NCBI GenBank assembly: GCA_027487795.1
Contig: JAIYCX010000005.1
Location: 1 to 52,900 of the forward strand
Source of the DNA: Pseudomonadota bacterium
GTDB taxonomy: Bacteria; Bdellovibrionota_C; UBA2361; SZUA-149; DAOLCO01
Direction: 5' to 3'
DNA length: 52,900 nucleotides
Numbering within the stretch: position 1 is the stretch's first letter; each line of letters opens with the position of its first letter. The position numbers were made by a program, and so were the translations under genes. Below are positions 21,619 through 49,020 of the stretch, piece after piece. The notes beneath the pieces are model-generated. The model was not told the DNA's origin and ran no database searches. It worked only from the letters and a program-made list of their open reading frames with translations.

Positions 21619-21784
21619 GTAAGAGAGGGATAATTATTCTTTTTTTTGCCCTTGCAAGCACCCCGCGCATTAGTCTGCAAAGAGCTTTTTTTGCATAGCA
21701 AAAAAATCTCCAGACTAATTGCTCCACCATGCCCTACCCAATCCCCTACGGGTCTGCAAAAAAGAATAATTATCCCTCTCTTAC
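21619..21784. repeat. Variable-arm element A1 (conserved core, unique perfect inverted arms)
   Basis: Arms of 27 nt at 21619-21645 (starting GTAAGAGAGGGATAATTATT) and 21758-21784 are perfect inverted complements. They enclose a GC-richer core of about 112 bp. The core contains an internal hairpin formed by ATTAGTCTG at 21669-21677 and CAGACTAAT at 21711-21719, with a T7/A7 inner stem. It begins with CTTGCAAG and ends with CCCCTACGGGTCTGC. The core matches the reverse complement of element A2 closely, but the arms share no sequence with A2. It lies in the gap upstream of pirin and downstream of the HI0933-type gene. No coding sequence was found in the 21498-22146 gap. Confidence 0.85.
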
Positions 21785-21933
21785 TTTTTATTTTTTTAAC
21801 AAAATCTAATTTGTTTGTTTAAAAAGTTCTTTATTAACACTAAATAAGTTATCAATAATTCTTATTACTTCATTGTTGATATAAGACTATTAAAAATCAT
21901 AGAATAAATTCAGTATAGAAAAAGAAAAAAAAT

Positions 21934-22095
21934 GAGCGTAAGCCAATAATGCTCGTTTGCCGACCCGTAGGGGCTGAGGTTGGTGGCGGTGGAGCAATTA
22001 GGCTGGAAATTTTTTTGCTCTGCTAAAAAAGTTCTTTGCAGACTAATGCGCGGGGAGCTTGCTAGGGCAAAAACGAGCATTATTGGCTTACGCTC
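21934..22095. repeat. Variable-arm element A2, opposite orientation to A1
   Basis: Arms of 25 nt at 21934-21958 (starting GAGCGTAAGCCAATAATGCT) and 22071-22095 are perfect inverted complements and differ entirely from those of A1. The core, read as reverse complement, carries the same landmarks as A1: CTAGCAAGC, CCCCGCGCATTAGTCTGCAA, the T/A-rich inner hairpin, CTAATTGCTCCACC and CCCCTACGGGTC. A1 and A2 are about 150 bp apart and inverted relative to each other. Confidence 0.85.
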
Positions 22096-22146: not shown

Positions 22147-23391
22147 TTAACTACTTGCACTATGGCCTGCAATATATCCAGTACTCCAAGCTGCTTGAAA
22201 ATTAAATCCCCCTGTTACACCGTCTATATCAAGCACTTCTCCGGCAAAGAATAAACCAGGGCAAATTTTACTTTCCATGGTTTTAAAATCTACTTCTTTC
22301 AGATTTATACCACCTGCGGTAACAAATTCTTCTTTAAATTTACCTTTGCCAGAAACTTCCAAATTTAAACTTATTACATATTTGGTGATTTGTTTTAGTG
22401 TCTTATTTGGAGTCTCTGCCCATATTAAATTTTCTTTAATTTCTAATAGTTCTGTTATCCTAGTCCAAAATGAGTTAGGTATATTTTGAAAATTTAGCAT
22501 TGAGAAAGGATTATTTTTTACAACCATTTTCTTGGGATTCTCTAATTTAATCTTTAGTAGACTTTCATAAACGTGATCAAAGTTTTTATTTAATAACAAG
22601 TTTATTTTTAAGTTAGCTTTATAATCATTCTCAAAGAGCTCTCTTGCTGCTATTGCCGAGAGAACTATTACGGCAGGACCACTAAGACCCCAATGGGTTA
22701 TTAAGAGTGGACCAGTATTCTTAAAAGCTTTATCTTTTACTTTAAGATTAACTTCAACATCTTCAAAGCTAACTCCAGATAAGCCTTCTAGGACTGGGCT
22801 TTTAATTTCAAAAGTAAATAAAGAAGGAACAGGATTAATTATACTATGACCCAAACTCTTAGCCATTTCGAAACCTTTTTGCTGACTACCACTAGCTAGT
22901 ATAATTTTAGAAAAATATTTCTCTTCGTTATTTGCAAGATTAATTCTGAAGCTTTCATCGACTTTATTAATTGAAGTTACTTTTGAATTAATATTAAGTT
23001 TTATATTTAAACTTTTAGCAGTATTTTTTAAACAATCAGCTATAGTGCTGGAGCTATCAGTAATGGGAAAAACTCTATTATCTTTTTCGACTTTAAGTTT
23101 GACTCCTTTTTTCTCAAACCACTCCAAAGTATCTTGGACTTTAAATCTACTAAAGGCCCCTAGTAATTCTTGCCCACCTCTAGGATATTTAGTCGCTAGG
23201 ATCTTAGGATCGAGAGTGTGGTTTGTTACATTACATCTACCCCCACCTGAAATTAGAACTTTTGATAAAACTTTTGTACTAGCTTCGAATATTTCTATAT
23301 TGCAGCCATTATTCAGCTCTGCAGCAGCTATCGCTGCAAAATACCCCGCCGCACCCCCGCCGATTATTGCTAATGATTTATTATTGTTCAT
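22147..23391 (-). CDS. HI0933-family FAD-dependent oxidoreductase
   Basis: The 414-residue flavoprotein belongs to the HI0933/TIGR00275 family (YhiN-like). The N-terminal dinucleotide-binding motif is SLAIIGGGAAGYFAAIAAAE, followed by KVLISGGGRCNVTNH near 46-60 and a C-terminal FAD site CPGLFFAGEVLDIDGVTGGFN. GGYNLQ-type ends are typical, and here the sequence reads GGFNFQAAWSTGYIAG. The enzymes are conserved in bacteria but the reaction is not established. The gene is transcribed towards the A2 element, whose hairpin could serve as its terminator. Confidence 0.9.
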   Translation of the reverse strand: MNNNKSLAIIGGGAAGYFAAIAAAELNNGCNIEIFEASTKVLSKVLISGGGRCNVTNHTLDPKILATKYPRGGQELLGAFSRFKVQDTLEWFEKKGVKLKVEKDNRVFPITDSSSTIADCLKNTAKSLNIKLNINSKVTSINKVDESFRINLANNEEKYFSKIILASGSQQKGFEMAKSLGHSIINPVPSLFTFEIKSPVLEGLSGVSFEDVEVNLKVKDKAFKNTGPLLITHWGLSGPAVIVLSAIAARELFENDYKANLKINLLLNKNFDHVYESLLKIKLENPKKMVVKNNPFSMLNFQNIPNSFWTRITELLEIKENLIWAETPNKTLKQITKYVISLNLEVSGKGKFKEEFVTAGGINLKEVDFKTMESKICPGLFFAGEVLDIDGVTGGFNFQAAWSTGYIAGHSASS

Positions 23392-45597: not shown

Positions 45598-45762
45598 AAC
45601 CGTCTGTTTGAACAAAATTTAAATAATCTTGCGCAAGACTGAAGCCACCACAAGCTCCGGAACATACCTTGCAGTTGCAAGGTGGTTTCCGGAGTCTTGT
45701 CCGCGCAATTAAGCCACCCCCTTGCGTCTGCAATAATTTAAATTTTGTTCAAACAGACGGTT
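45598..45762. repeat. Variable-arm element B1
   Basis: Arms of 27 nt at 45598-45624 (starting AACCGTCTGTTTGAACAAAA) and 45736-45762 are perfect inverted complements. The 111-bp core contains a two-part hairpin: outer stem CTCCGGAA with TTCCGGAG (8 bp) and inner stem ACCTTGCA with TGCAAGGT (8 bp). It begins with CTTGCGCAAG and ends with CCCCCTTGCGTCTGC. Core landmarks are shared with element B2, which is inverted relative to it, and partly with the A elements. It lies between the VOC remnant and the duplicated membrane protein gene. Confidence 0.85.
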
Positions 45763-46513: not shown

Positions 46514-46901
46514 AGATATTTCCTTTTTTCGGGAGGGCTAATATAATTTTACACTAATTGACTTGTTCTAGTATTTTCAATGAAATAAATATCATAAAAT
46601 ATTTGTAGGATCTACTTAAATACTTACCACTATTAATTATCCTTCACCTCATACTAGTTAACAACTTTCCATGAACTGATAAAATATTTCAGTTTGTATT
46701 AGAGAAATCGTAATTCTAATATTTACATGTTTGATATTTATACTGCATCCTTATTTTCAAAGGGATGACGTTGTTGTCGTAAGTGTAAGGGGTATGGCGT
46801 GTAAGTATCGAGATTACAGTTTGAAAAAGATTAATGAATCGAAATCAATTATCACAAGTTTTTAACTAAATGGTCAAATAAAATAAGTGATGCGCGGGGC
46901 A
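46514..46901. other. Intergenic region without recognisable gene
   Basis: This 388-bp AT-rich stretch lies upstream of the duplicated membrane protein gene and left of element B2. I found no coding sequence, tRNA, or convincing terminator in it. Confidence 0.5.
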
Positions 46902-47049
46902 AGAGGTATTAGATCTAGTCTCTTCGCAGATGGCGAGGGGAGGTTGTTGCGCGGGCTTGATTTCGGAAACGCCGTTGCTCAGCAAGGGCTGTTCCGAAAC
47001 AAGCGGTGGCTTCAGTTCGACACAAGAAGAGACTAGATCTAATACCTCT
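46902..47049. repeat. Variable-arm element B2, opposite orientation to B1
   Basis: Arms of 24 nt at 46902-46925 (starting AGAGGTATTAGATCTAGTCT) and 47026-47049 are perfect inverted complements and unrelated to other arms. The 100-bp core carries GCAGATGGCGAGGGGAGG and TTGCGCGG, and the hairpin TTTCGGAA...TTCCGAAA enclosing TTGCT-C-AGCAA. It ends with GGTGGCTTCAGT. Compared with the reverse complement of B1, the outer hairpin pairs C-G are replaced by T-A on both sides. It lies just past the 3' end of mnmC. Confidence 0.85.
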
Positions 47050-47103
47050 GGGGGGGAACTATATGCTAATTTTTTGAATAATGCGTAGGCAGTAAAGTAA
47101 TGC

Positions 47104-49020
47104 TCAGCTTCTCCAAATAAAAGACGCAGGATATATTTCTTGAATACTGATTCCTCGCTTCTTCTCTCTGTTCTTAAATCTAACAGGACTAAGTTCTTTT
47201 AAAAGATCAGCTTCAACTGGACTAGTGGTATTTAATATTTCTGCTGCAATAATTTCAGCTGCTAGAAAAGTAGAAACCATTCCTCTTGAACCATGTCCTA
47301 AGGAAAGATGAATTTTTGAATTTTCTGAAATGCGTCCAATTATCGGTACCCTATCAGGGCTGGTTGTTCTGAAACATACTCTACCTTCTTTGTATTCAGC
47401 TCCAAGTGGGTTTTTATCTTGTAGTTTAGTTTCTGAATCCGAATTTAAGTTTAATGTTTTTTCTAGTCTATGAATTAGATCGTCAAAAATTTTTGGATTT
47501 GTTTCTTCGATATGACTATTATGTTCGTAAGTTGCTCCTAAAACAAATTCATTGTCGTTTACTGGTACTAGATAGCCATCGTAACATAAGGGCATTTCTG
47601 GGGAGAAGTTATTTAGAGTAATATGACAGAGTTCACCTTTTATTTTTTCTACGGGAACCCATTCTAGAATTTTTTGAAAAGCGCTATCAAAACCACCTGC
47701 AAATATTAGATGATCAAACTCGTATTCGGCTCCTGAGCAGGTTATTGTGACTTTACTTTCTGATTCTTTGATATCTTCTATTTTAGAATTTAACTTTAAT
47801 TCTATGTTTTTTTTACCTAGTTCTAATATTGCCTGTAACAACTCTTTTGGCTGAATTGATCCTCCTTCTTTAAAAAGTAGACTATCCGGATCGTTTTGTT
47901 TTGTAATTATACTTTCTAAACCAAGTTCTTCTATTTTAGACCAAACTGATTTCCATTTTTTTACATTACAATAACGTAGTGCCCCGTTAAGTGATAAGGT
48001 TTTTATTTTTATTTGTTTGTTAATTTGAGCGATGAGCCTTAGAGAATATAAATATCCAGCTAGATAGTAGCGACATTGCATGTCTGGCACCGATGAGATT
48101 TGAGGCATTATTACAGCTCTTAAATTACCTGAAGCTTTGGTGGAGAAGTCTGGTTCCTTTTCGAAAATAGTAACTTCTAATCCTCTCTGACTTAAGGAGT
48201 GAGCAGCAGCAATACCTGATAGTCCGCCACCTATTATAGCTACTTTTTTATTTTGTATTTTTTTCTGTTCTATTGAAACATTATCTAAGCATAGCTCACC
48301 AATTGTCATTTCTTTTTTCTCGCCATGCCCTTTGATTTTTGTGCATTTGAAGCCAGCCTCTTCAGCGGCTTCTATGACGGGTCTTGAGCAGGAATATGTA
48401 GAGAAAGTAGTTCCTAGTTTCGAATTCTTTCGGATATTATTAAAAACTTCCTTGCTCCACATTTCTGAATTTTTCTTTGGACTAAATCCATCTAAATACC
48501 AAGCATCAAATTTAGAATTAATATTATGTAGAGCAGTATTTATTTTGTTAAAAATTAATGTTAGTGAGCAGCGACCATTAGCTAATAAGATTTGATGATG
48601 ACCTTTTATTCTAGGAGGATAAAGTTCAATTAGTTCATTTGTGAATTCTCTTAAAGATTCTAAAGTAGTGTCATTATTTTCGTTTATTAATAATTTATTA
48701 TAAAAATTTTCTAGATCTAATTTGCTTACTGGAAAGCCTTCAATTGAAGTATATGATAAATATAGATCAGGATATTTTTGTAATTGTTGCCATGTGCTAA
48801 GTAGTGAAACACCGAAACCAAATCCTAGTTCACAAATAGAAAAGTATTTGGGTGATTCTAATTTTTCTAATCTTTCATGCAAAAAGTTACCGTTTACAAA
48901 AACATGACTGGCTTCTTCAAGCGCGCCATTCTTTGAATGGAAAATGTCTTGAAATAACTCGGAATAAGGCGAGCCGTTTAATTTTGAAATTATATGATCT
49001 GGTAGCTTAAAGGAGTCCAA
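47104..49020 (-). CDS. mnmC: Bifunctional tRNA 5-methylaminomethyl-2-thiouridine biosynthesis protein MnmC
   Basis: MnmC completes the wobble modification mnm5s2U34 of tRNA: the oxidase domain converts cmnm5U to nm5U and the methyltransferase domain makes mnm5U. The 638-residue protein starts with TTG at 49020, after TTAGGAC. The N-terminal methyltransferase half shows ICELGFGFGVSLLSTW at about 62-77 and AWYLDGFSPKKNSEMWS near 172-188. The FAD half starts at KKVAIIGGGLSGIAAAHSLSQRG near 258-280 and ends with SLGHGSRGMVSTFLAAE. Both halves are complete, as in many proteobacteria. The gene is divergent from the HDOD-like gene. Confidence 0.93.
   Translation of the reverse strand: MDSFKLPDHIISKLNGSPYSELFQDIFHSKNGALEEASHVFVNGNFLHERLEKLESPKYFSICELGFGFGVSLLSTWQQLQKYPDLYLSYTSIEGFPVSKLDLENFYNKLLINENNDTTLESLREFTNELIELYPPRIKGHHQILLANGRCSLTLIFNKINTALHNINSKFDAWYLDGFSPKKNSEMWSKEVFNNIRKNSKLGTTFSTYSCSRPVIEAAEEAGFKCTKIKGHGEKKEMTIGELCLDNVSIEQKKIQNKKVAIIGGGLSGIAAAHSLSQRGLEVTIFEKEPDFSTKASGNLRAVIMPQISSVPDMQCRYYLAGYLYSLRLIAQINKQIKIKTLSLNGALRYCNVKKWKSVWSKIEELGLESIITKQNDPDSLLFKEGGSIQPKELLQAILELGKKNIELKLNSKIEDIKESESKVTITCSGAEYEFDHLIFAGGFDSAFQKILEWVPVEKIKGELCHITLNNFSPEMPLCYDGYLVPVNDNEFVLGATYEHNSHIEETNPKIFDDLIHRLEKTLNLNSDSETKLQDKNPLGAEYKEGRVCFRTTSPDRVPIIGRISENSKIHLSLGHGSRGMVSTFLAAEIIAAEILNTTSPVEADLLKELSPVRFKNREKKRGISIQEIYPASFIWRS

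What the first reader, a model, noticed from the sequence alone, without database searches (positions are those of the whole stretch)
21619..22095. Two elements with the same core but different perfect inverted arms (A1 and A2)
Seen directly: A1 (21619-21784) and A2 (21934-22095) share a core of about 110 bp in opposite orientation, with landmarks CCCCGCGCATTAGTCTGCAA and CTAATTGCTCCACC. They are enclosed by 27-nt and 25-nt arms. Each arm pair is perfectly complementary within a copy, but the arms of A1 and A2 share no sequence. In ordinary transposons and MITEs the terminal repeats are the conserved part. Here the core is conserved and the ends are copy-specific, so the complement must be made anew for each copy. 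Inference: the element may insert by a mechanism that copies about 25 nt of the target in inverted form (for example hairpin-primed DNA synthesis), or each copy has a co-evolving closing stem of a structured RNA. I know of no described family with this design.
Basis: partly seen in the sequence, partly recalled or inferred. Interest (0 to 1): 0.93.

Follow-up and report, generated by a model that had tools for sequence, protein, structure and literature searches.

The report
Scattered hairpins with co-changing arms
One unnamed bacterial genome carries more than fifty scattered copies of small hairpin elements whose middle part stays largely the same within a subfamily while the two arms change together and still match, likely because one strand has to fold, so the set is a natural record of how a probably mobile structured sequence evolves.

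Summary
In detail: A1 and A2 share a 112-nt core in opposite orientation inside 27- and 25-nt perfect arms. The reading is partly right. The arms are not unrelated or freshly made from the target: they are homologous, diverged stems in which most changes are mirrored. At least 53 copies with both arms lie in this genome (types A-E); two more are in the window. None was found in 44 other genomes of the phylum or in the plasmid, phage and viral searches made. In 18 A copies, 24 base pairs show two-sided changes (0 of 500 shuffles). Among near relatives 75 arm pairs changed on both sides and stayed paired, 17 changed on one side. Residual mismatches are strand-biased (23 G.T, 2 A.C on strand R), so folding of R, as RNA or single-stranded DNA, is likely under selection. 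The R 3' end lies within 70 nt of a gene 3' end in 22 of 45 copies, the R 5' end in 2. No clear target duplication; no match to TnpB or IS110 domains; the Y1 transposases present have other ends. Best reading: a dispersed, probably non-autonomous hairpin family, a new variant of the REPIN/MITE kind. Transcription and mobility are untested.

The parts
21619..21645 (+). A1, low-coordinate arm (3' arm on strand R, which is the - strand here)
21646..21757 (-). A1 core, 112 nt; strand R is -
21758..21784 (+). A1, high-coordinate arm (5' arm on R)
21785..21933 (.). AT-rich spacer between A1 and A2; a diverged A1-spacer-A2 composite recurs at C40:11375-11859 of the same genome
21934..21958 (+). A2, 5' arm on R (R is +)
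21959..22070 (+). A2 core, 112 nt
22071..22095 (+). A2, 3' arm on R; 51 nt from the stop codon of the gene at 22147-23391 (-)
45598..45762 (-). B3-type copy, 30-nt arms (45598-45627 and 45733-45762), 105-nt core, R is -
46902..47049 (+). B1-type copy, 24-nt arms (46902-46925 and 47026-47049), 100-nt core, R is +; 54 nt behind the stop codon of the gene at 47104-49020 (-)

Best explanation
A1 and A2 are two of at least 53 dispersed hairpin elements of one design in this genome whose two arms change together while the roughly 100-nt core is largely conserved within a subfamily, likely because one particular strand (R) has to fold as a single strand, probably RNA, and the copies would have spread by an enzyme acting in trans that is not identified. 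Shown: copy number, dispersal, mirrored arm changes, strand bias of the mismatches, and for about half of the tabulated copies a position just behind a gene end with R antisense to the gene. Inferred: selection on the R fold, with G-U and purine-purine mismatches as tolerated intermediates. Inferred: that R exists as RNA rather than single-stranded DNA. Inferred: non-autonomous movement with a preference for the stretch behind stop codons.
For: 18 A copies: 97.9% of cells paired; 24 pairs with two-sided change (shuffle mean 10.7; 0 of 500 reach it; slid controls 5-12). 9 B copies: 30 such pairs (shuffle mean 13.2, 0 of 500; slid 4-10). In both the structure came from the alignment itself. 45 copies: arms hold 1172 Watson-Crick, 23 G.T, 2 A.C and 26 other pairs on R (binomial P 2e-5, copies not independent). 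Internal mismatches: 22 G.T, 2 A.C, 14 purine-purine, 4 pyrimidine-pyrimidine. Helix 3 (GGGG with GGCUU) keeps two G.U pairs on R, each in 17 of 18 A copies and in 9 of 9 B copies. Dispersal. R 3' end within 70 nt of a gene 3' end in 22 of 45 copies, R 5' end in 2. Mean divergence of A arms is 2.3 times that of A cores. In 280 kb, 3 of 3 hairpins with arms of 20 or more and loops of 40-260 were of this family.
Against: No expression data, and no promoter or terminator of an R transcript was shown. Read-through from the gene in front would give the C strand, not R. The higher predicted stability of R (53 of 53 copies) is, for the core, no more than base composition gives. Low G.T (about 2% of arm pairs) and the many double changes that are not transition-type (32 of 75) suit arm-to-arm copying better than slow compensation. 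Other mismatches (26) are as common as G.T. No mobilising enzyme, clear target duplication or empty site was found. Of 42 neighbours on the R 3' side, 11 face the element with their 5' end, and E copies show little of the behind-the-gene preference.
Confidence: 0.5

Rival explanations
1. The arms match because one arm is rewritten from the other (hairpin-templated copying during replication or during movement of a folded strand), not because pairing is selected.
For: 75 paired double against 17 single changes between nearest relatives, 32 of the 75 not transition-type; C63 and C60 differ at 2 of 112 core sites and at 2 arm pairs, both mirrored; C55 and C60 differ at 7 of 111 core sites and 8 arm pairs, all mirrored. 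Arm and core trees disagree: C53 and C55 have identical arms but cores nearest to C26 and C60. C40:11697-11859 has one A1-type and one main-type arm that do not match, as a fresh recombinant would.
Against: Predicts no strand bias of leftover mismatches, yet G.T exceeds A.C 23 to 2 on R. Some paired positions inside the core also show two-sided changes (helix 4: 3 of 15 pairs in A, 6 of 21 in B).
Confidence: 0.3
2. The elements are fixed 3'-UTR devices of the upstream genes (termination or mRNA-end protection) in the C orientation, and the copies are not mobile.
For: 22 of 45 copies sit within 70 nt behind a gene 3' end in the same orientation, including thiL-, rne-, yebC-, ffh-, parB- and thrS-like genes; many A copies have a T-rich stretch after the C-strand stem.
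Against: The tolerated mismatches belong to the opposite strand; the B stems are not followed by a T run (flanks); cores are near-identical at unrelated loci; E copies are mostly not so placed.
Confidence: 0.15
3. Ordinary MITEs with several terminal-repeat subfamilies, each moved by a different transposase.
For: Short, dispersed, intergenic, long terminal inverted repeats, several arm types.
Against: Arms grade into one another by mirrored point changes; no clear target duplication; of 24 matches to the main arm (up to 3 mismatches), 21 lie in listed full or partial copies, so no larger parent element with these ends was seen.
Confidence: 0.1

Closest known systems
REPINs (paired inverted REP sequences moved by RAYT/TnpA-REP)
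   Same: Many short dispersed hairpins, folded as single strands, with compensatory changes on both sides of the hairpin (PMC3116915, passages read), and inverted pairs of elements.
   Different: In REPINs the ends are the conserved part and the spacer compensates; here the core is conserved and the ends compensate. No Y1 transposase with matching ends was seen.
Bacterial MITEs (ERIC/NEMIS-like repeats, names recalled)
   Same: Small, non-coding, dispersed, inverted ends, often directly behind genes (stated in PMC2674063, passages read).
   Different: Ends not conserved between copies; no clear target-site duplication.
Multicopy structured RNAs of mobile elements (HEARO/omega RNA, bridge RNA; recalled)
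   Same: Structured single-strand product with conserved core, many copies.
   Different: No Rfam match to the elements at gathering score; no match to the TnpB C-terminal domain or to IS110.
Borrelia plasmid repeat motifs with compensatory changes
   Same: Repeated stem-loops, some behind genes, with two-sided changes (PMC2674063, passages).
   Different: In the passages seen, stems of 11-21 bp and no large conserved core between inverted arms.

Membership tests
REPIN | conserved, REP-containing ends | tested here: not met
   A arms diverge 2.3 times more than the A core
REPIN | cognate RAYT next to copies | tested here: not met
   6 Y1 frames; around five of them neither model finds a copy; the sixth has two copies nearby, one of them interrupted beside IS-end-like sequence
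REPIN | long single-strand hairpin with compensatory changes | tested here: met
MITE | terminal inverted repeats shared by copies and by a parent element | tested here: not met
   arms vary between copies of a subfamily; no parent seen
MITE | target-site duplication | tested here: inconclusive
   44 copies: mean longest word shared by the two flanks 5.27 against 4.98 (sd 0.16) for swapped flanks, no adjacent shared word of 8 or 9; exact element ends uncertain
HEARO / TnpB omega RNA | associated TnpB-type nuclease | tested here: not met
   PF07282: 0 matches in this 91%-complete assembly; IscB was not searched
IS110 bridge RNA | IS110 recombinase in genome | tested here: not met
   PF01548: 0 matches in this 91%-complete assembly
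Any Rfam family | score above gathering cut-off over an element | tested here: not met
   window and 12 further loci only
Integron attC site | cassette array and integrase | not tested
   copies are dispersed singly or in pairs; integrase not searched

The most novel reading that the evidence does not exclude
Each time the element is copied, its folded strand primes synthesis on itself and remakes one arm from the other, so every new copy starts with perfectly matching arms whatever its parent had picked up: a small mobile element that corrects its own ends by snapback synthesis, with the R strand as the folded intermediate.
Probability: 0.25. Interest if true: 0.85.

Novelty: new variant of a known kind. 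Interest (0 to 1): 0.6.

Why it matters
It inverts the usual layout of small mobile repeats: the middle is kept and the ends vary in step. With more than fifty copies in one genome at graded divergence, it offers a direct data set for telling compensatory selection from arm-to-arm copying, and the strand bias of the mismatches points to which strand is the working one. The same stem design around a core not relatable by sequence (E) suggests that the stem, not the core, is what the spreading machinery or host function needs.

Tried and rejected
Rfam at gathering and relaxed thresholds: nothing credible on the elements (a microRNA family at E 5e-4 over the A1-A2 inverted pair scores 29.9 bits against a cut-off of 230 and was dismissed). 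Exact scan of genome contigs with an A-core 18-mer: 5 single hits in unrelated organisms, judged chance; B was not scanned there. Viral contigs, exact patterns: 0. One B copy in plasmids and phages and A2 in plasmids: 0 (A was not searched in phages). RAYT as mobiliser: one Y1 frame has copies nearby, and the nearer copy (C10:239246) has lost its R 5' part at a junction with sequence resembling the end of the IS; four of the six Y1 frames share an upstream motif (CGATAACGGTAGG) that does not match the arms. Target-primed retro-insertion judged from 5' truncation: dropped, since C10:239246 is better explained by an IS, C11:23338 keeps the R 5' part instead, and the only reverse-transcriptase match is the likely group II intron. 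Target duplications: none clear. R-strand fold energy as evidence: rejected, composition explains the core difference. Deamination alone as cause of the G.T bias: several G.T pairs look like A to G rather than C to T changes (read by hand); a strand-biased mutation process is not excluded. Kinship by model R2: A copies score 31-63 bits, but reverse strands of B copies reach 46 bits from the stem alone, so only the better A scores, C (76-80) and D (58-60) exceed that baseline; E (29.6 bits with R1) does not and is grouped by architecture only.

Full report
What is there. A1 (21619-21784) and A2 (21934-22095) are as described: perfect 27- and 25-nt arms around 112-nt loops, cores 86% identical in opposite orientation. 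Two more window copies lie at 45598-45762 and 46902-47049. I call R the strand on which A2 reads as +, and C its complement.

Copies. The A1 core has 23 matches in the genome, on 16 contigs. A covariance model of 18 A copies (R1) gave 45 matches, counting both strands of the same copies and weak ones. A search for the inner-hairpin signature GGAAATT-N14-22-GTTC gave 41 matches against 25 for the reversed-pattern control, and exposed a second subfamily, B. A model of 9 B copies (R2) gave 61 matches, again counting both strands. I tabulated 45 copies with both arms. Dropped before that count: C67:141312 (no matching arms), the chimera C40:11697, the truncated C10:239246 and C29:37878, the copy split over C41 and C52, and fragments at C11, C5:157891, C60:118300 and C60:146662. 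A direct look for hairpins in part of the genome found 8 more: seven of a further architecture E and one D, so 53. In a 280-kb survey (14 stretches of C33 and C5, seed of 14 exact bases) hairpins with arms of at least 20 and loops of 40-260 numbered three, all family members.

Kinship. A and B share the inner-hairpin motif GAAA..GTTC (39 of 45 copies). R2, built from B alone, scores A copies at 31-63 bits, D at 58-60 and C at 76-80; reverse strands of B copies reach 46 bits through the stem alone. I therefore count A-D as one probable superfamily and E as sharing architecture only.

Arms. In 18 A copies the 24 outer pairs hold 412 Watson-Crick, 8 G.T, 0 A.C and 12 other pairs on R. RNAalifold finds 24 pairs changed on both sides and still paired. 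In the count test 24 are observed, shuffle mean 10.7, 0 of 500, slid controls 5-12. For 9 B copies: 30, shuffle mean 13.2, 0 of 500, slid controls 4-10. The structures were derived from the same alignments, which favours them in these controls. In 14 nearest-relative comparisons by core, 97 arm pairs differ: 75 double changes that stay paired (43 transition-type, 32 not), 17 single, and 5 doubles that do not stay paired. Mean divergence is 0.319 in arms against 0.138 in cores; arms exceed core in 135 of 153 pairs of copies. So the arms look private because they change fast and in step, not because they are unrelated.

Which strand. Over 45 copies the arms hold 23 G.T and 2 A.C on R (one of the two A.C lies in an outward extension of the A1 stem). 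Internal mismatches are 22 G.T, 2 A.C, 14 purine-purine and 4 pyrimidine-pyrimidine. The 8 further copies add 7 G.T, 2 A.C and 6 purine-purine; both A.C and two of the G.T lie in an inner stretch of one copy that is probably not stem. Mismatches that a folded strand tolerates thus sit on R. Helix 3 contains conserved G.U pairs that only R can form. Copies are not independent, so P values are guides. Against over-reading: R is predicted more stable than C in 53 of 53 copies, but shuffled cores give as large a difference.

Place. With open frames of at least 90 codons (no gene caller), a gene 3' end lies within 70 nt of the R 3' end in 22 of 45 copies and of the R 5' end in 2. Of 42 nearest neighbours on the R 3' side, 31 face the element with their 3' end and 11 with their 5' end. 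For B the upstream genes include thiL-, rne-, yebC-, ffh-, parB- and thrS-like genes (names inferred from Pfam domains). R is then antisense to the gene in front. E does not follow this clearly: 2 of 7 within 70 nt.

Movement. Copies stand at many different loci, but no clear target duplication is visible: the mean longest word shared by the two flanks is 5.27 against 4.98 (sd 0.16) for swapped flanks, and no adjacent word of 8 or more is shared (44 copies). A diverged A1-spacer-A2 composite recurs on contig C40. One copy is split by a likely group II intron (intron type judged from the reverse transcriptase and recalled end motifs). Six Y1 frames exist; four share an upstream motif unlike the arms, and one IS appears to have inserted into a family copy. 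TnpB and IS110 domains have no match. The mobiliser is unknown.

Spread. No match in 56 other genomes by core DNA, nor in the 44 other genomes of the phylum by R1 or R2 (with strict filters), nor in the plasmid, phage and viral-contig searches made. No genome of the same family is among those searched, so the range is not well tested.

Two mechanisms remain. Selection on the R fold explains the strand bias and the compensated core pairs. Arm-to-arm copying explains the speed, the double changes that are not transition-type, the conflict of arm and core histories (C53 and C55 have identical arms but different nearest cores) and the mismatched chimera at C40:11697-11859. I prefer the first, at about 0.5, and keep the second as the bold reading.

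Literature. Four searches were answered and listed no family described as having a conserved core and co-varying ends; I read passages of PMC3116915 and PMC2674063 and otherwise saw only listings with abstract beginnings. Most subscription papers are not held, so absence from print is not shown.

Noticed in passing
G000:C41:9615-9759 and G000:C52:2-1922: A likely group II intron (reverse transcriptase at C52:481-1143, the only RVT_1 match in the genome) sits inside the inner hairpin of an A copy, split over two contigs.
   Followed up: partly
G000:C10:238236-239421; also C2, C32, C50, C60, C62: Six Y1/IS200-like transposase frames; four share an upstream CGATAACGGTAGG..GTTATC motif; one IS appears to have inserted into a family copy.
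   Followed up: partly
G000:C40:11697-11859 (L098): Chimeric A copy whose R 5' arm is A1-type and R 3' arm main-type, not complementary to each other.
   Followed up: partly
G000:C18:510-740 and C5:1815-1990: Two B copies carry an extra short palindrome (CTGTCCCGAGCTTGTCGAGGGA-like) in the G-rich loop, resembling a repeat common in other bacteria (recalled).
   Followed up: no
flanks of B1 copies, e.g. window 46890-46901 and 47050-47060: G-runs on both outer sides of the B1 stem on strand R, plus a G-rich inner loop; possible G-quadruplex, untested.
   Followed up: no
L131:5587-5749 (G000:C27): A glmS ribozyme (Rfam 96.3 bits) upstream of a glmS-like gene; a B2 copy lies 260 nt behind that gene.
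   Followed up: no
G000:C60:80001-120000: E copies are dense here (six in 40 kb) although none was found in 280 kb of C33 and C5 stretches.
   Followed up: no
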